Shown: one piece after another, positions 2,076 through 35,486 of the stretch
Layout of the letters: each line of letters begins with the position of its first letter
Position numbering within the stretch: the first letter of the stretch is position 1
Assembly (NCBI GenBank): GCA_030655835.1
Contig: JAUSPC010000037.1
Coordinates: forward strand, 1 to 35,659
Length of the DNA stretch: 35,659 nucleotides
Reading direction: 5' to 3'
Source: Pelolinea sp.
GTDB lineage: Bacteria; Chloroflexota; Anaerolineae; Anaerolineales; Anaerolineaceae
Position numbers and translations under genes: made by a program
Notes under the pieces: generated by a model
The model's input: only the letters and a program-made list of their open reading frames with translations
What the model was told of the DNA's origin: nothing
Databases searched by the model: none

Positions 2076-2279
2076 TTTTCTTCCTGCAACAACTCTTTTT
2101 CGTTTTTCTGAGTGCTTGTCTATGGAACAGGATATTGCCCTTTCAGGACTTCCTTCGGTCGCGGGTTTGCCCCTTCGAATTACTTCGCAACCCCTGTCAG
2201 CCACCCCAAATTATGAGGACTACTAGTAAGTAGACCTTTTTAAATATTTTGAGATATTTATAGAAATAATTTAATGGAG

Positions 2280-2402
2280 TACCTGACTTCGAATCCCCAA
2301 AGGGACAAGTGTCAGGAAGTTGTGGGTTCGCCCTGATGGGCGCAGTCAGGTAAATCCCGCCGCACTCAAGAGTGGGCAACGCGCGGGTCGCCTCATTTGC
2401 CC
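2280..2402. other. Inverted-repeat-rich intergenic block upstream of dnaK
   Basis: TACCTGACT (2280-2288)/AGTCAGGTA (2344-2352); alternative partner GTCAGG (2311-2316); CGCCC-TGAT-GGGCG (2329-2342); GGGCAA (2374-2379)/TTGCCC (2397-2402). Confidence 0.45.
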
Positions 2403-2708
2403 CGTTTTCCCTATTTTATACCCATATCTAGGGGTGTTTTCCTTTTAATACTGGGTTTGCTAATTATCCCAGATACAACTAGATCCAAGTGTTATGCTCT
2501 GGCTTATAAATATCCACAAGTTTGTGGCACTAATTTTTGGAGCTAGATATTCGTTTTATGGTGCTGTATATCATGCGGGCTTGTATATCTTTTTTTTCCT
2601 ATCCGCATTAATCTATTAACATTTCTCATACGTCTTTCTGATTTTCTTCTTGCATTCACTGATTACCATTTAACTATATAAAAAGGTAAGTTTTGTAAGG
2701 AGAAAATA

Positions 2709-30395: not shown

Positions 30396-30809
30396 ATGAG
30401 TTTTCATACGATCATCATTGTAGGTAATTTGGGAAAAGATCCTGAAATGCGGTATGTACCCAATGGCAGCGCTGTCACATCTTTTAGCGTAGCCAGCAAC
30501 CGCCAATATACGGATTCCAACGGCCAGAAGGTCAAAGAAACCACCTGGTTTAATGTATCTGTATGGGGTAAACAGGCGGAAAACGTGAACACATATTTAC
30601 AAAAAGGGAGCACTGTCTTGATCGAGGGAGAACTTCGCCCAGACAAAGAGACCGGCAGTCCCCGCACCTATACACGCTCTGATGGATCTACCGGAGCGTC
30701 ATATGATATAAACGCCCGCACTGTCCGCTTCCTTTCTTCTAAAGGCAGCAGCACTGACGGTTTTGCGGATAGCGGCGGTGGAGATGGGGACGAAGATATC
30801 CCATTTTAA
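30396..30809 (+). CDS. ssb: Single-stranded DNA-binding protein
   Basis: 137-aa ORF; IIIVGNLGKDPEMRYVPNGSAVTSFSVASNR; acidic C-terminus GGGDGDEDIPF. Confidence 0.97.
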   Translation: MSFHTIIIVGNLGKDPEMRYVPNGSAVTSFSVASNRQYTDSNGQKVKETTWFNVSVWGKQAENVNTYLQKGSTVLIEGELRPDKETGSPRTYTRSDGSTGASYDINARTVRFLSSKGSSTDGFADSGGGDGDEDIPF

Positions 30810-30835: not shown

Positions 30836-31474
30836 ATGTTTACAGACCTAACTGATAGAGCTCATCAGGATTTTGAAGCACGCCATCAGGTACGTGAGGA
30901 TGCGCTGAAACAAACCAGAAAATTGACCCGTCATGCGGCCAACGCGATCCGCGCTATTCACCGTAATGAGCATGAAAACGCTGAAGAAAATATGACCGCC
31001 GCTGTGAGTATTGTGGCTGGTCTGCATGAATCTTTAAAGAGTTTCCCGGAATTTTATTTTTCTGGCTACACCCAGGATTCGTTAAAAGAATACGTGGAAG
31101 CGCGCTTGACAATAGATTTTCTGGGAAACAAACCCCTACCCACTCCTGAAGAATTGGGAGTGGAATACAGCACCTATTTGCGCGGCCTGGCTGAGACAAT
31201 TGGCGAGATGCGGCGCAGATGCCTGGATATTTTGCGACAGGGGTACTCTGATGATGCCGAACGTCTGCTTTATCTGATGGATGAGATCTACTCACTTTTG
31301 GTTACGATGGATTACCCGGACGCGATCACATACGGATTAAGACGTCAAACGGATCTGGTACGCGGCATCATCGAGCGAACCAGGGCGGACCTCACGCTCA
31401 GCCTGCGCGAACAGCACATGCAGGATGCACTCAAGGAGTTTGAAGAACGCATCATCAATCGTGACTCCCAGTAA
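30836..31474 (+). CDS. Translin-family protein
   Basis: 212-aa all-helical ORF; REDALKQTRKLTRHAANAIRAIHR, LKEYVEARL, LPTPEELGVEYSTYLRGLAETIGEMRRRCLDILRQG, DYPDAITYGLRRQTDLVRGIIERTRADLT. Confidence 0.8.
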   Translation: MFTDLTDRAHQDFEARHQVREDALKQTRKLTRHAANAIRAIHRNEHENAEENMTAAVSIVAGLHESLKSFPEFYFSGYTQDSLKEYVEARLTIDFLGNKPLPTPEELGVEYSTYLRGLAETIGEMRRRCLDILRQGYSDDAERLLYLMDEIYSLLVTMDYPDAITYGLRRQTDLVRGIIERTRADLTLSLREQHMQDALKEFEERIINRDSQ

Positions 31475-31702
31475 ACGCACAATTCGCGCATCAGAGATTG
31501 TACATTCATATACTGCCAGCGCGCATGGTGGTACCAACGAAAGAAAGTCAAACCGATCAACACAGCGGAACTTGCGGCTGGGCAGAATTTTCATCAGCTG
31601 CATATCAACCATTCGCGCATTGGGAAATTTCTCAAGGATCTCGCGTGGTTGTTGGTTGTTGTATTACTCATTCTCTTGAGTACCTTGATCTCAAATAGAT
31701 GA
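31461..31702 (+). pseudogene. Cas4-like N-terminal half, membrane-anchored, frameshifted
   Basis: Manual translation: (GTG)TPSKRTIRASEI [frameshift about 31500-31504] FIYCQRAWWYQRKKVKPINTAELAAGQNFHQLHINHSRIGKFLKDLAWLLVVVLLILLSTLISNR*; N-terminal cluster Cys (YC) and C-terminal TM; overlaps the translin stop. Confidence 0.65.
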
Positions 31703-31716
31703 TCATCTTCTAACGC

Positions 31717-32243
31717 ATGAAAAACATTTCACCCGTTCTATTGACTGTGGGAATTCTTGCTCTCATTGCTTTCTTCCTATTCTCGATCTCGCGTCTGCTG
31801 CTAAAAAAGACGGGCATTCCGGAATGACGGATCATTTATTCCGACCCCGGTGTGTGGAATAAAACCCAGAAACCGCTATATAATGCGGCCATCGAACTTA
31901 CAGGTAAACCTGACTATCTTATCAAGCAGGGCAGCCACATCATCCCCGCGGAAGTGAAATCATCCTGGGCGCCCAGCAGCCCTACGATAGCCATATCCTG
32001 CAGTTAGCCGCGTACTGTGTCTTAGTAGAGAATGCTTATGAACAACGTCCTCCCTATGGAATTCTGCGCTACCGCAACCGCACATTTACAATTTAATATA
32101 CTGTGGAATTAGAACAGCGGGTGATGGGGTTGATCGAAAGCATTAGATTTCAGAAGAGTAAAAATGAAATGCAAAGATCACATGAGCATAAATCCAGATG
32201 TTCGGGTTGCGGGTACCGGAACATCTGTGATCAGCGTTTATGA
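31717..32243 (+). pseudogene. Cas4/PD-(D/E)XK nuclease-like half with N-terminal TM; in-frame TGA, frameshift and TAA
   Basis: Manual translation: MKNISPVLLTVGILALIAFFLFSISRLLLKKTGIPE*RIIYSDPGVWNKTQKPLYNAAIELTGKPDYLIKQGSHIIPAEVKSSWAPS/fs/PYDSHILQLAAYCVLVENAYEQRPPYGILRYRNRTFTI*YTVELEQRVMGLIESIRFQKSKNEMQRSHEHKSRCSGCGYRNICDQRL*; TGA at 31825, -1-type shift about 31980, TAA at 32094. Confidence 0.8.
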
Positions 32244-32278: not shown

Positions 32279-33139
32279 ATGGAAAAAAAGATATCTAATT
32301 TCGGGATCGCCTTCAACGAGCAGATCAGCGATGTGGCTGAGATCAGTAGTGAGATCTCTGCCTACTTAATAAAAGCGGGCGCGCAGGTATCTGTATTTGG
32401 GGCGATCCAGGAAGAAAAGATACGGCGGGACATCTTAGAATCAAAATCGGAAGCGCTCATCGTTTTAGGCGGAGACGGATCCATGCTGCGTGCATGCCAT
32501 CTTTGCTCATCAGCACAGATACCCATCATTGGAATAAATTTTGGAACCATGGGGTTCTTGATCGAACTGCAGCGTAATGAATGGAAACAATATTTTCCGC
32601 GACTGCTTAATGGGGATTACAGAATAGAAAAAAGAATGATGCTCCAGGCAGAGCATTTCCGCGGAGAAAAAAGTCTGGGATGCTGGCAGGTGGTCAATGA
32701 AGTGGTCGTCTGCCGTGGGCAGATCGTTCGTCCTGTTCGTTTGACCACCGAAGTTGATGGATATCCCATGGCCAGTTATGTGGCGGATGGTATTATCGCC
32801 GCAACGCCAACCGGATCCACCGCATACGCGCTTGCTGCCGGAGGGGCGATCTTGCCGCCGGATATCCGTAACATCATCATTGTCCCCATTGCACCGCACC
32901 TCTCGCCCGATCAAGCCATCGTCTTATCAGAAGGCGCGCAAGTGACAATCAGGGTCCACTCATCATATGCTGTATTCAGTATTGACGGACACCCTCCCGT
33001 AAATATTGATGGCGGAGATCATGTTCGGGTCGGAGCAAGTTCGGATAATTCCTTGTTTATCAGATTCCATGATCCCGGCTTTTTTTACCGAACATTAAAC
33101 CGGTATCTGGAAAACAATCCTTCTTTTCCAATTAGTTAG
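32279..33139 (+). CDS. nadK: NAD kinase
   Basis: 286-aa ORF; ALIVLGGDGSMLRACH, IIGINFGTMGFLIEL, VADGIIAATPTGSTAYALAAGGAI. Confidence 0.97.
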   Translation: MEKKISNFGIAFNEQISDVAEISSEISAYLIKAGAQVSVFGAIQEEKIRRDILESKSEALIVLGGDGSMLRACHLCSSAQIPIIGINFGTMGFLIELQRNEWKQYFPRLLNGDYRIEKRMMLQAEHFRGEKSLGCWQVVNEVVVCRGQIVRPVRLTTEVDGYPMASYVADGIIAATPTGSTAYALAAGGAILPPDIRNIIIVPIAPHLSPDQAIVLSEGAQVTIRVHSSYAVFSIDGHPPVNIDGGDHVRVGASSDNSLFIRFHDPGFFYRTLNRYLENNPSFPIS

Positions 33140-33202: not shown

Positions 33203-33733
33203 ATGACAGAAACCAATACACTTTATTGCATAAACCACCCAAATAAAGAAACCCTGCTTCGTTGTAACCAATGCGAACAGCCGATCTGCACCCAATGTGC
33301 AATTCCTACACCTACCGGTTACCGCTGTAAGTCATGCGTGCGCGGACAACAGAAAAAATTCAATACTGCTCAGGTATCCGATTATATTTTCACTCCCATC
33401 CTCGCGGGAGTTCTCTCTTATATCGGATCGTATATTATTGGCAGACTGGGGTTTCTTACCATTTTTATTACCCCATTCATCGGTATGGCTATTATGCGTA
33501 TAGCGCGTGCAGTTATTAAGAACCGAAGATCAAACACACTTTTTCTGGTCACAGCGGGTGCAGTTTTGCTTGGCAGCCTTCCGCTGCTTGCCATTGACCT
33601 TCTGATATTGATCAATGGATTGAGAGCAGATGCATTCAGCATCTATGCTTTGCTGCCCTTGATATGGCAGGGTGTATATACAGTACTGGTTACCGGTTCG
33701 GTTTATTATCGGTTAAAGGGAATTTCTTTCTAA
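33203..33733 (+). CDS. Membrane protein with N-terminal B-box-like zinc finger
   Basis: 176-aa ORF; CINHPNKETLLRCNQCEQPICTQCAIPTPTGYRCKSC followed by about 4 TM helices. Confidence 0.85.
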   Translation: MTETNTLYCINHPNKETLLRCNQCEQPICTQCAIPTPTGYRCKSCVRGQQKKFNTAQVSDYIFTPILAGVLSYIGSYIIGRLGFLTIFITPFIGMAIMRIARAVIKNRRSNTLFLVTAGAVLLGSLPLLAIDLLILINGLRADAFSIYALLPLIWQGVYTVLVTGSVYYRLKGISF

Positions 33734-33746
33734 GAGACCAACAATT

Positions 33747-35486
33747 ATGCTTAAAGAACTCCGAATTGAGAATTTTGCAATTATTGACAAGTTGGTATTA
33801 ACCTTTGGAGAAGGGCTTACAACATTTACAGGGGAAACAGGTGCGGGAAAATCCATCCTGCTCGATGCGATCGAGGCACTCATGGGGGGAAGAGCAGAGA
33901 CCACAATGATCCGGGCAGATGCGGAACGCGCAAACCTCGAAGCTGTTTTCTCGATCCCCATTCAACACAAGGACAAGATCCTTCAACTTTTAGAAGATGA
34001 AGAGTTGCGGGAAAATGAGGATGAAATCCTTTTTAATCGAGAGATACGGCGGGAGGGCAGGAATATCGCCCGATTAAATGGACGCGTGGTGACGGTATCC
34101 TTCATGCGAGAGATCGGTAGCTACCTGGTGGATATTCATGGACAGTCAGAACACTTATCACTTCTAACCATACGCCATCATCTAAACTTATTAGACAGGT
34201 TTGCAGATAATCAGGATATCCTCTGCCAGTACCAGATTGTTTTTCAATCAATAAAAAGCGTACGTGATGATCTCGATGAATTACGGAAAGCGGAACAAGA
34301 TGCAGCCCGACAGACTGATCTCCTTCAATACCAGATCCATGAGATCGAAGCCGCGAAATTAGAACCCGGTGAGGAGGAAGAACTGCGCCGAGAGCTCAGC
34401 CGGCTGGCAAACGCGGAGAAATTGGCTTCTTTGGCGCAAAATGCGTATGCCCTGCTCGAGGAAGCTTCACCCGACAATCCATCTATAAGCGATATGTTTG
34501 GGGATGCAGCCAAGTCGATCCATGCCTTAGCTGAGATCGATCATGGACTTGAGGATTTAGCTTCCCAAAGCGAAACGATCAGTGCCCTGCTTGCGGACAC
34601 CAGCCTGACCCTTCAGGATTATATCGAACAGATCGAATACAATCCCAAGCGGCTGGAACAAACAGAAACCCGCTTGGCGCTGATCACGACTTTAAAGAAA
34701 AAATATGGAGCGGATGAAACCGCTGTACTAAATTTTGCAGACATTGCGCGCGAAAAACTCGAGAAAATATCACATACAGAAGAACAGATCGAAGAATTGG
34801 AGCAGCAGGAAAAAGAACTGCTTCAAAAATTAACCCGGGCAGCCCTCGCCTTATCCGAATCGCGCAAAAAAGCAGCCAGGGAAATGGGAGATCAGGTAGA
34901 AGGTGAACTTCTCGAACTCAAGATGGCTGGCGCACGATTCTCAGTCTCCATCACCCACAAAACGAGTGAGAATGGGATCGAGATCGGTGGTGGAGAAAAA
35001 GTTGACTTCAACAGCAGCGGGATTGACCATACGGAATTCCTTATAGCTCCGAATCCAGGTGAGGGTCTGAAACCACTGGTCAAGATCGCATCTGGCGGGG
35101 AAACATCTCGCCTTATGCTCGCACTTAAGAATGTGCTAGTAAATGCGGATACGATCCCAACCCTCATCTTTGATGAGATCGATCAGGGGATTGGTGGGTG
35201 CGTCGGTGCTGTGGTTGGAGAAAAACTATGGCAGCTTGGCAGGTCACATCAGGTTCTATGCGTCACACACCTTCCCCAACTTGCCGCCTACGGACATCAG
35301 CACTTCCATGTACTCAAGAAAGTAACTGATGGGCGCACCGTCACAGCAGTAGAAAAACTGGATACTGTCCGCCGGCAGGGCGAATTGGCACATATGTTTG
35401 GCGGTGATAGCGAGGCCAATCGAGCAGCTGCTCAAGAAGTGCTGGAAACTGCCTCCCAATTTAAACAAAATAATTCTCTCAGCTAA
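33747..35486 (+). CDS. recN: DNA repair protein RecN
   Basis: 579-aa ORF; MLKELRIENFAIIDKLVLTFGEGLTTFTGETGAGKSILLDAIEALMGGRA; IASGGETSRLMLALKNVL; PTLIFDEIDQGIGG; VLCVTHLPQLAAYG. Confidence 0.98.
   Translation: MLKELRIENFAIIDKLVLTFGEGLTTFTGETGAGKSILLDAIEALMGGRAETTMIRADAERANLEAVFSIPIQHKDKILQLLEDEELRENEDEILFNREIRREGRNIARLNGRVVTVSFMREIGSYLVDIHGQSEHLSLLTIRHHLNLLDRFADNQDILCQYQIVFQSIKSVRDDLDELRKAEQDAARQTDLLQYQIHEIEAAKLEPGEEEELRRELSRLANAEKLASLAQNAYALLEEASPDNPSISDMFGDAAKSIHALAEIDHGLEDLASQSETISALLADTSLTLQDYIEQIEYNPKRLEQTETRLALITTLKKKYGADETAVLNFADIAREKLEKISHTEEQIEELEQQEKELLQKLTRAALALSESRKKAAREMGDQVEGELLELKMAGARFSVSITHKTSENGIEIGGGEKVDFNSSGIDHTEFLIAPNPGEGLKPLVKIASGGETSRLMLALKNVLVNADTIPTLIFDEIDQGIGGCVGAVVGEKLWQLGRSHQVLCVTHLPQLAAYGHQHFHVLKKVTDGRTVTAVEKLDTVRRQGELAHMFGGDSEANRAAAQEVLETASQFKQNNSLS

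What the first reader, a model, noticed from the sequence alone, without database searches (positions are those of the whole stretch)
31461..32243. Decayed split, membrane-anchored Cas4-like nuclease hidden in an apparently ORF-free gap
Seen: no single ORF covers this gap, but joining frames gives two adjacent half-genes. Half A carries the Cas4-like N-terminal segment SEI..FIYCQRAWWYQRK..AELAAGQNFHQLH followed by a TM helix. Half B begins with a TM helix, then carries a PD-(D/E)XK-like core (GKPDYLIKQGSHIIPAEVKSS, PYDSHILQLAAYCVLVE) and a Cys cluster RCSGCGYRNICDQ. Lesions: a frameshift near 31500, TGA at 31825, a frameshift near 31980, and TAA at 32094. Established: Cas4-family nucleases bind an Fe-S cluster through one N-terminal and three C-terminal cysteines around a PD-(D/E)XK core. 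Inference: the ancestor was a two-polypeptide, TM-tethered Cas4-like system not tied to CRISPR, with the cluster cysteines split between two proteins.
Basis: partly seen in the sequence, partly recalled or inferred. Interest (0 to 1): 0.78.

Follow-up and report, generated by a model that had tools for sequence, protein, structure and literature searches.

The report
Broken copy of split Cas4-like nuclease
This gap holds a recently broken copy of a DNA-cutting enzyme that healthy relatives build from two separate membrane-anchored proteins, each carrying part of one active site; the two-part form is conserved across much of the bacterial phylum Chloroflexota, and I found no published description of it.

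Summary
Window 31461-32243 encodes two broken half-genes, with two frameshifts and two in-frame stops. Half A matches positions 5-44 of Pfam Cas4 and half B positions 53-158: complementary parts of one domain.

The main inference also holds, and goes beyond this pseudogene. In the window's family, 65 loci (62 distinct pairs) carry intact A and B as two adjacent ORFs, never one. A is about 80 aa with a C-terminal TM helix; B is about 170 aa with an N-terminal TM helix. Charge bias puts both soluble parts in the cytoplasm. A holds the invariant first Cys and a His; B holds Asp, Glu, Lys, Gln and three Cys. All 90 strong-B genomes in a 400-genome phylum sample also have A, even where the genes are far apart. 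Both genes are under purifying selection. A read-through A+B model is confident and matches Cas4 structures best. There is no association with Cas1. In one large-genome family A and B are fused as A-TM-TM-B, nested among split relatives.

The usual context is SSB-translin-like-A-B-NAD kinase-RecN, which suggests DNA-end processing at the membrane; function is inferred. Closest known: solo-Cas4. I found no report of the split, tethered form. Decay is favoured over assembly error, not settled.

The parts
31461..31702 (+). Half A pseudogene (Cas4 N-terminal segment with first Cys and His, then C-terminal TM helix); frameshift near 31500
   Evidence: Peptides in two frames; Pfam Cas4 positions 5-44; profile of intact A hits 31502-31693 at E 8.4e-20
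31717..32243 (+). Half B pseudogene (N-terminal TM helix, PD-(D/E)XK core, three-Cys cluster); TGA 31825-31827, frameshift near 31971-31986, TAA 32094-32096
   Evidence: Peptides; Pfam Cas4 positions 53-158, E 2.5e-9; TIGR00372 E 1.1e-18; intact orthologs 52-58% identical in three same-genus genomes
30396..30809 (+). SSB, conserved upstream neighbour
   Evidence: PF00436 E 1.1e-31; near the pair in 61 of 71 loci
30836..31474 (+). Translin-like (PRK14562) gene, immediate upstream neighbour overlapping the start of A
   Evidence: PF01997 E 9.7e-8, NF011160 E 5.7e-73; present in 62 of 71 loci
32279..33139 (+). NAD kinase, downstream neighbour
   Evidence: PF20143 E 2.1e-27; 38 of 71 loci
33203..33733 (+). 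Gene with weak B-box zinc-finger match, conserved between NAD kinase and RecN
   Evidence: PF00643 E 5.6e-5, just under its cut-off; 36 of 71 loci
33747..35486 (+). RecN, downstream neighbour
   Evidence: TIGR00634 E 2.6e-161; 36 of 71 loci

Best explanation
The window holds a recently inactivated copy of a two-gene, membrane-tethered Cas4-like nuclease. In the intact form A and B are two polypeptides. A gives the first helices with one cluster Cys and the conserved His, then crosses the membrane outward. B starts outside, crosses inward, and gives the catalytic Asp-Glu-Lys-Gln core and three cluster Cys. The two TM helices form an antiparallel hairpin that takes the place of a connection within a normal Cas4 chain, so a complete active site and Fe-S site exist only when both proteins meet at the inner face of the membrane. 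Shown here: two genes, complementary coverage of Cas4, invariant residues, TM helices and charge bias, near-perfect co-occurrence, purifying selection, natural fusions, predicted fold. Inferred: physical assembly, Fe-S binding, nuclease activity, and the role, most likely processing of DNA ends or ssDNA together with SSB, the translin-like protein and RecN.
For: Complementary Cas4 coverage. 65 loci with A and B as separate ORFs, 25 overlapping and 35 within 40 nt, none fused. Invariant residues: A10, C19, G41, H45 in A; PD57, K72, Q87, Y91, C153, C156, C162 in B. 90 of 90 strong-B genomes have A, including genomes with the genes far apart. TM >=1.6 in both in 60 of 65; K+R bias puts both soluble parts inside in 62 and 64 of 65. 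dN/dS 0.04-0.11 (A) and 0.05-0.16 (B) in the five closest pairs. AF2 of a read-through A+B: pLDDT 94.5, pTM 0.89; top Foldseek hits are I-C Cas4 chains 8d3l_J/I, E 2e-6, TMt 0.66, aligned over 271-279 columns. Natural A-TM-TM-B fusions, nested among split forms. Ordinary single-chain Cas4s of the same phylum match A then B in one ORF without TM. Context.
Against: Half A alone matches Cas4 only weakly (E 0.018; 23 of 52 intact A proteins match PF01930 at E<=0.1). The A+B model used a stop read as a residue and an alignment in which A-only rows put their TM on B's TM columns, so the hairpin geometry is less certain than the score suggests. The model of a natural fusion was poor (pLDDT 64.5, 20 rows). 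No coordinates were available to measure cluster or active-site geometry. The repair context is absent in other lineages.
Confidence: 0.8

Rival explanations
1. Same two-part nuclease, but its role is a barrier to incoming DNA (phage, plasmid or transforming ssDNA) at the membrane rather than repair.
For: Membrane tethering with the nuclease parts facing the cytoplasm. A Cas4-like nuclease of Synechococcus reduces transfer or maintenance of RSF1010 plasmids (PMC10653904). Foldseek also matches Argonaute-associated Cas4 proteins.
Against: The conserved operon with SSB, translin-like, NAD kinase and RecN and low dN/dS look like housekeeping; no relative found in viral contigs with one query.
Confidence: 0.3
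2. The lesions are sequencing or assembly errors and the organism has intact A and B.
For: All 11 conserved positions of A and 27 of 28 of B are kept; catalytic residues and cysteines intact; the genome is a 223-contig assembly.
Against: Four lesions lie in about 0.78 kb while the five flanking genes are intact against same-genus orthologs; two of the lesions are in-frame stops.
Confidence: 0.2
3. B alone is the nuclease and A is an unrelated small membrane protein that happens to sit next to it.
For: A matches Cas4 weakly by sequence; B alone passes NCBI's Cas4 cut-off.
Against: A and B cover complementary Cas4 positions; 90 of 90 co-occurrence, also when unlinked; natural fusions; B lacks the first cluster Cys, which is invariant in A.
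Confidence: 0.04
4. Remnant of an ordinary CRISPR-associated Cas4.
For: TIGR00372 hit above cut-off.
Against: No cas genes among the neighbours identified; Cas1 found in 36 of 93 genomes with B and 16 of 54 without, Fisher p=0.29; split/TM clade separated from single-chain Cas4s apart from two long-branch rows.
Confidence: 0.02

Closest known systems
Solo-Cas4 (COG1468/PF01930), described for many Chloroflexi by Hudaiberdiev et al. 2017 (PMC5704561)
   Same: PD-(D/E)XK motifs, four cysteines, predicted Cas4 fold, encoded away from CRISPR; the Chloroflexi solo-Cas4 in that paper may well include half B
   Different: Two polypeptides with the active site and cysteines divided, each with a TM helix; the paper's text does not mention split or transmembrane forms
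CRISPR adaptation Cas4 (type I-C 8d3l; Cas4/1 7mi4)
   Same: Best structural and profile matches
   Different: Single soluble chain, works with Cas1-Cas2; ours is tethered, split and not associated with Cas1
Argonaute-associated Cas4 family (ACE1, 9iac/9iab) and MGME1/Dna2-type nucleases
   Same: Related fold in the Foldseek search
   Different: Weaker match; single chain
AddB/Dna2 Fe-S nucleases (own knowledge)
   Same: One N-terminal and three C-terminal Cys around a PD-(D/E)XK core
   Different: Single large helicase-nuclease chain; ours has no helicase

Membership tests
Cas4 family (PF01930/TIGR00372) | PD-(D/E)XK catalytic motifs (D, E, K, Q..Y) plus conserved His | tested here: met
   D57, K72, Q87, Y91 invariant and E70 nearly so in 57 B; H45 invariant in 52 A
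Cas4 family (PF01930/TIGR00372) | Four cysteines, 1 N-terminal + 3 C-terminal | tested here: met
   C19 in A; C153, C156, C162 in B, all invariant, but on two chains
Cas4 family (PF01930/TIGR00372) | Cas4 fold | tested here: met
   Predicted only: AF2 pTM 0.89, best PDB match Cas4 8d3l
Cas4 family (PF01930/TIGR00372) | One continuous chain (usual form of described members, not a stated requirement of the profile) | tested here: not met
   0 of 65 loci in one ORF; exceptions are three fusions in f30
Cas4 family (PF01930/TIGR00372) | Fe-S cluster and DNA nuclease activity | not testable with these tools
   Needs purified protein
CRISPR-associated Cas4 | Encoded with cas1/cas2 | tested here: not met
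   Neighbours are SSB, translin-like, NAD kinase, RecN; no association with Cas1
Solo-Cas4 | Cas4 homolog outside CRISPR and MGE contexts | tested here: met
Pseudogene | Disrupted reading frame while relatives are intact | tested here: met
   Lesions; intact in three same-genus genomes
Pseudogene | Lesions confirmed by reads or a second genome | not testable with these tools
   No reads available; no near-identical genome found

The most novel reading that the evidence does not exclude
An obligate two-protein, membrane-embedded Fe-S nuclease in which a TM hairpin interrupts the Cas4 fold and the gene is divided at the outer loop, so that catalysis and cluster binding are switched on only by assembly in the membrane; it serves as a core DNA-end processing (or DNA-entry surveillance) factor in much of Chloroflexota, independent of CRISPR.
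Probability: 0.5. Interest if true: 0.78.

Novelty: new variant of a known kind. Interest (0 to 1): 0.67.

Why it matters
Cas4-type nucleases are treated as single soluble chains. Here the active site and the cluster ligands are divided between two membrane proteins that nearly always occur together, in a conserved DNA-repair-like operon. Half B alone passes the automated Cas4 cut-off, while half A only weakly matches any family and is probably annotated as hypothetical, so the pair is easily missed. The long-open question of what solo-Cas4 does gets a testable system: remove either half in a culturable relative and look at DNA damage survival and DNA uptake. The natural fusions and the genomes with unlinked halves are ready-made controls.

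Tried and rejected
Two reference or input errors. Viral scan with the B alignment could not be run; with one intact B it found no relative. AF2 of a natural fusion with 20 rows gave a poor model, from which nothing is concluded. Rejected: simple single-ORF Cas4 (no single-ORF relative among the 65 loci inspected in the family); CRISPR link; A as an unrelated protein. B found without A nearby in Caldilineaceae first looked like a counter-example, but A is elsewhere in all five genomes. Literature searches for split or membrane Cas4 found nothing, limited to open-licence papers. Other phyla could not be surveyed beyond one single-sequence scan whose 12 hits were all Chloroflexota by title.

Full report
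Observation. Half A starts at GTG 31461, overlapping the end of the translin-like gene, shifts frame near 31500, and ends in a TM helix with stop 31700-31702. Half B starts at ATG 31717 with a TM helix, meets TGA at 31825-31827, shifts frame near 31971-31986, meets TAA at 32094-32096, and ends with the three-cysteine motif at 32243. Pfam Cas4 aligns to A at positions 5-44 (weak, E 0.018) and to B at 53-158 (E 2.5e-9); TIGR00372 aligns to B at 52-178 above its cut-off. The search of the genome found no other Cas4-like gene and no second half A.

Intact relatives. A genome scan gave 12 relatives and a search of 147 genomes of the window's family gave 93 with B. In the three other genomes of the same genus B is intact, 52-58% identical to the window copy. 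In 71 inspected loci, 65 (62 distinct pairs) have A directly upstream of B as a separate ORF: 25 overlap, 35 are within 40 nt, 5 are further apart, and none is one ORF. A is mostly 71-93 aa, B mostly about 165-185 aa.

Anatomy. In 52 A proteins A10, C19, G41 and H45 are invariant; in 57 B proteins G54, P56, D57, P68, K72, Q87, Y91, C153, C156 and C162 are among the invariant columns and E70 is nearly so. So the catalytic set and the four cluster cysteines of a Cas4 are complete only when A and B are taken together. A TM-strength segment is found in both proteins in 60 of 65 loci. Lys+Arg counts favour N-inside for A in 62 of 65 and C-inside for B in 64 of 65. This predicts both soluble parts in the cytoplasm and an antiparallel TM pair.

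Partnership. In a phylum sample of 400 genomes, 90 have B at 170 bits or more (the window's own broken copy counted among them), and all 90 have A. By reading the hit positions, 11 of those 90 have A and B on different contigs or far apart, for example G347 (one contig) and G422. Five Caldilineaceae genomes with B alone at the B locus each carry A elsewhere, and G052 has SSB-translin-A on one contig and B-NAD kinase-RecN on another. The closest pairs give dN/dS of 0.04-0.11 for A and 0.05-0.16 for B, so both are maintained.

Fusions. In a large-genome family (f30) three genomes carry a single ORF of 330-339 aa from the likely start: A domain, TM, short loop, TM, B domain. On the B-domain tree they are nested among split relatives, with at least two changes forced by well-supported branches, so the split form is older within this clade. 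Several f30 members, fused or split, have lost catalytic residues (PD Asp to Ala, Thr or Ser; Glu to Ala or Val) but keep the cysteines. Ordinary single-chain Cas4s in the same phylum match profile A and then profile B in one ORF and have no TM segment; they form a separate branch, apart from two long-branch rows (L224, L187) of unsure place.

Structure. One relative (L055) has A and B in the same frame; reading the A stop as a residue gave a 251-residue chain that AlphaFold2 folded with mean pLDDT 94.5 and pTM 0.89. The best PDB matches are Cas4 chains of the type I-C Cas4-Cas1-Cas2 complex (8d3l, E 2e-6, TM-score 0.66 by target length), followed among others by Cas4/1, MGME1, Argonaute-associated Cas4 and Pcal_0546 Cas4. 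Caveats: the stop read as a residue, and A-only rows that aligned their TM to B's TM columns. A model of a natural fusion with only 20 rows was poor.

Context and function. Upstream are SSB (61 of 71 loci) and a translin-like gene (62); downstream are NAD kinase (38), a small conserved gene (36) and RecN (36). Cas1 is present in 36 of 93 genomes with B and 16 of 54 without (p=0.29), so the pair is independent of CRISPR. I infer a membrane-tethered nuclease for DNA ends or ssDNA in a repair setting (about 0.5); a barrier to incoming DNA is the main rival (about 0.3), supported by a Cas4-like nuclease limiting plasmid transfer or maintenance in Synechococcus (PMC10653904). The confidence of 0.8 given for the best explanation is for the two-part tethered architecture, not for the role.

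Decay. The window copy keeps 11 of 11 (A) and 27 of 28 (B) of the positions conserved in at least 90% of relatives, so loss is recent. Four lesions in under 0.8 kb, with intact flanking genes, favour real decay over random error, but without reads this is not settled.

Known versus new. Solo-Cas4 in many Chloroflexi was noted in 2017 (PMC5704561), without mention of a split or of TM helices in the text; other searches of the open library found nothing. I therefore call it a new variant of a known kind: a Cas4-family nuclease in two membrane-anchored parts.

Noticed in passing
L177, L178, L179, L180, L188, L189, L192, L193 (family f30): Related TM-Cas4 proteins, fused or split, in which catalytic Asp or Glu is lost (GKPAY, GKPTY, GKPSY, ARPAY; PIALK, PIVLK) while the cysteines stay, suggesting a non-catalytic Fe-S role.
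   Followed up: partly
window 2076-2708: About 630 bases without a long ORF just upstream of a gene starting [11 protein letters not shown] (DnaK-like by eye); no Rfam family at gathering score and only a chance-level match below it.
   Followed up: partly
window 30836-31474: A translin-family protein sits next to SSB and half A in most relatives; it is also directly upstream of half A in one Caldilineaceae genome and in G205 of family f27 (L196, L191), so the translin-A link may be older than the whole operon.
   Followed up: partly
G000:C130:19092-19721: The genome has a weakly matching, probably type I-E-like Cas1 (285-codon open frame) although its only Cas4-like gene is broken.
   Followed up: no
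L070 5418-6656: 486 bases lie between A and B in this relative, against 40 or fewer in most; content not examined.
   Followed up: no
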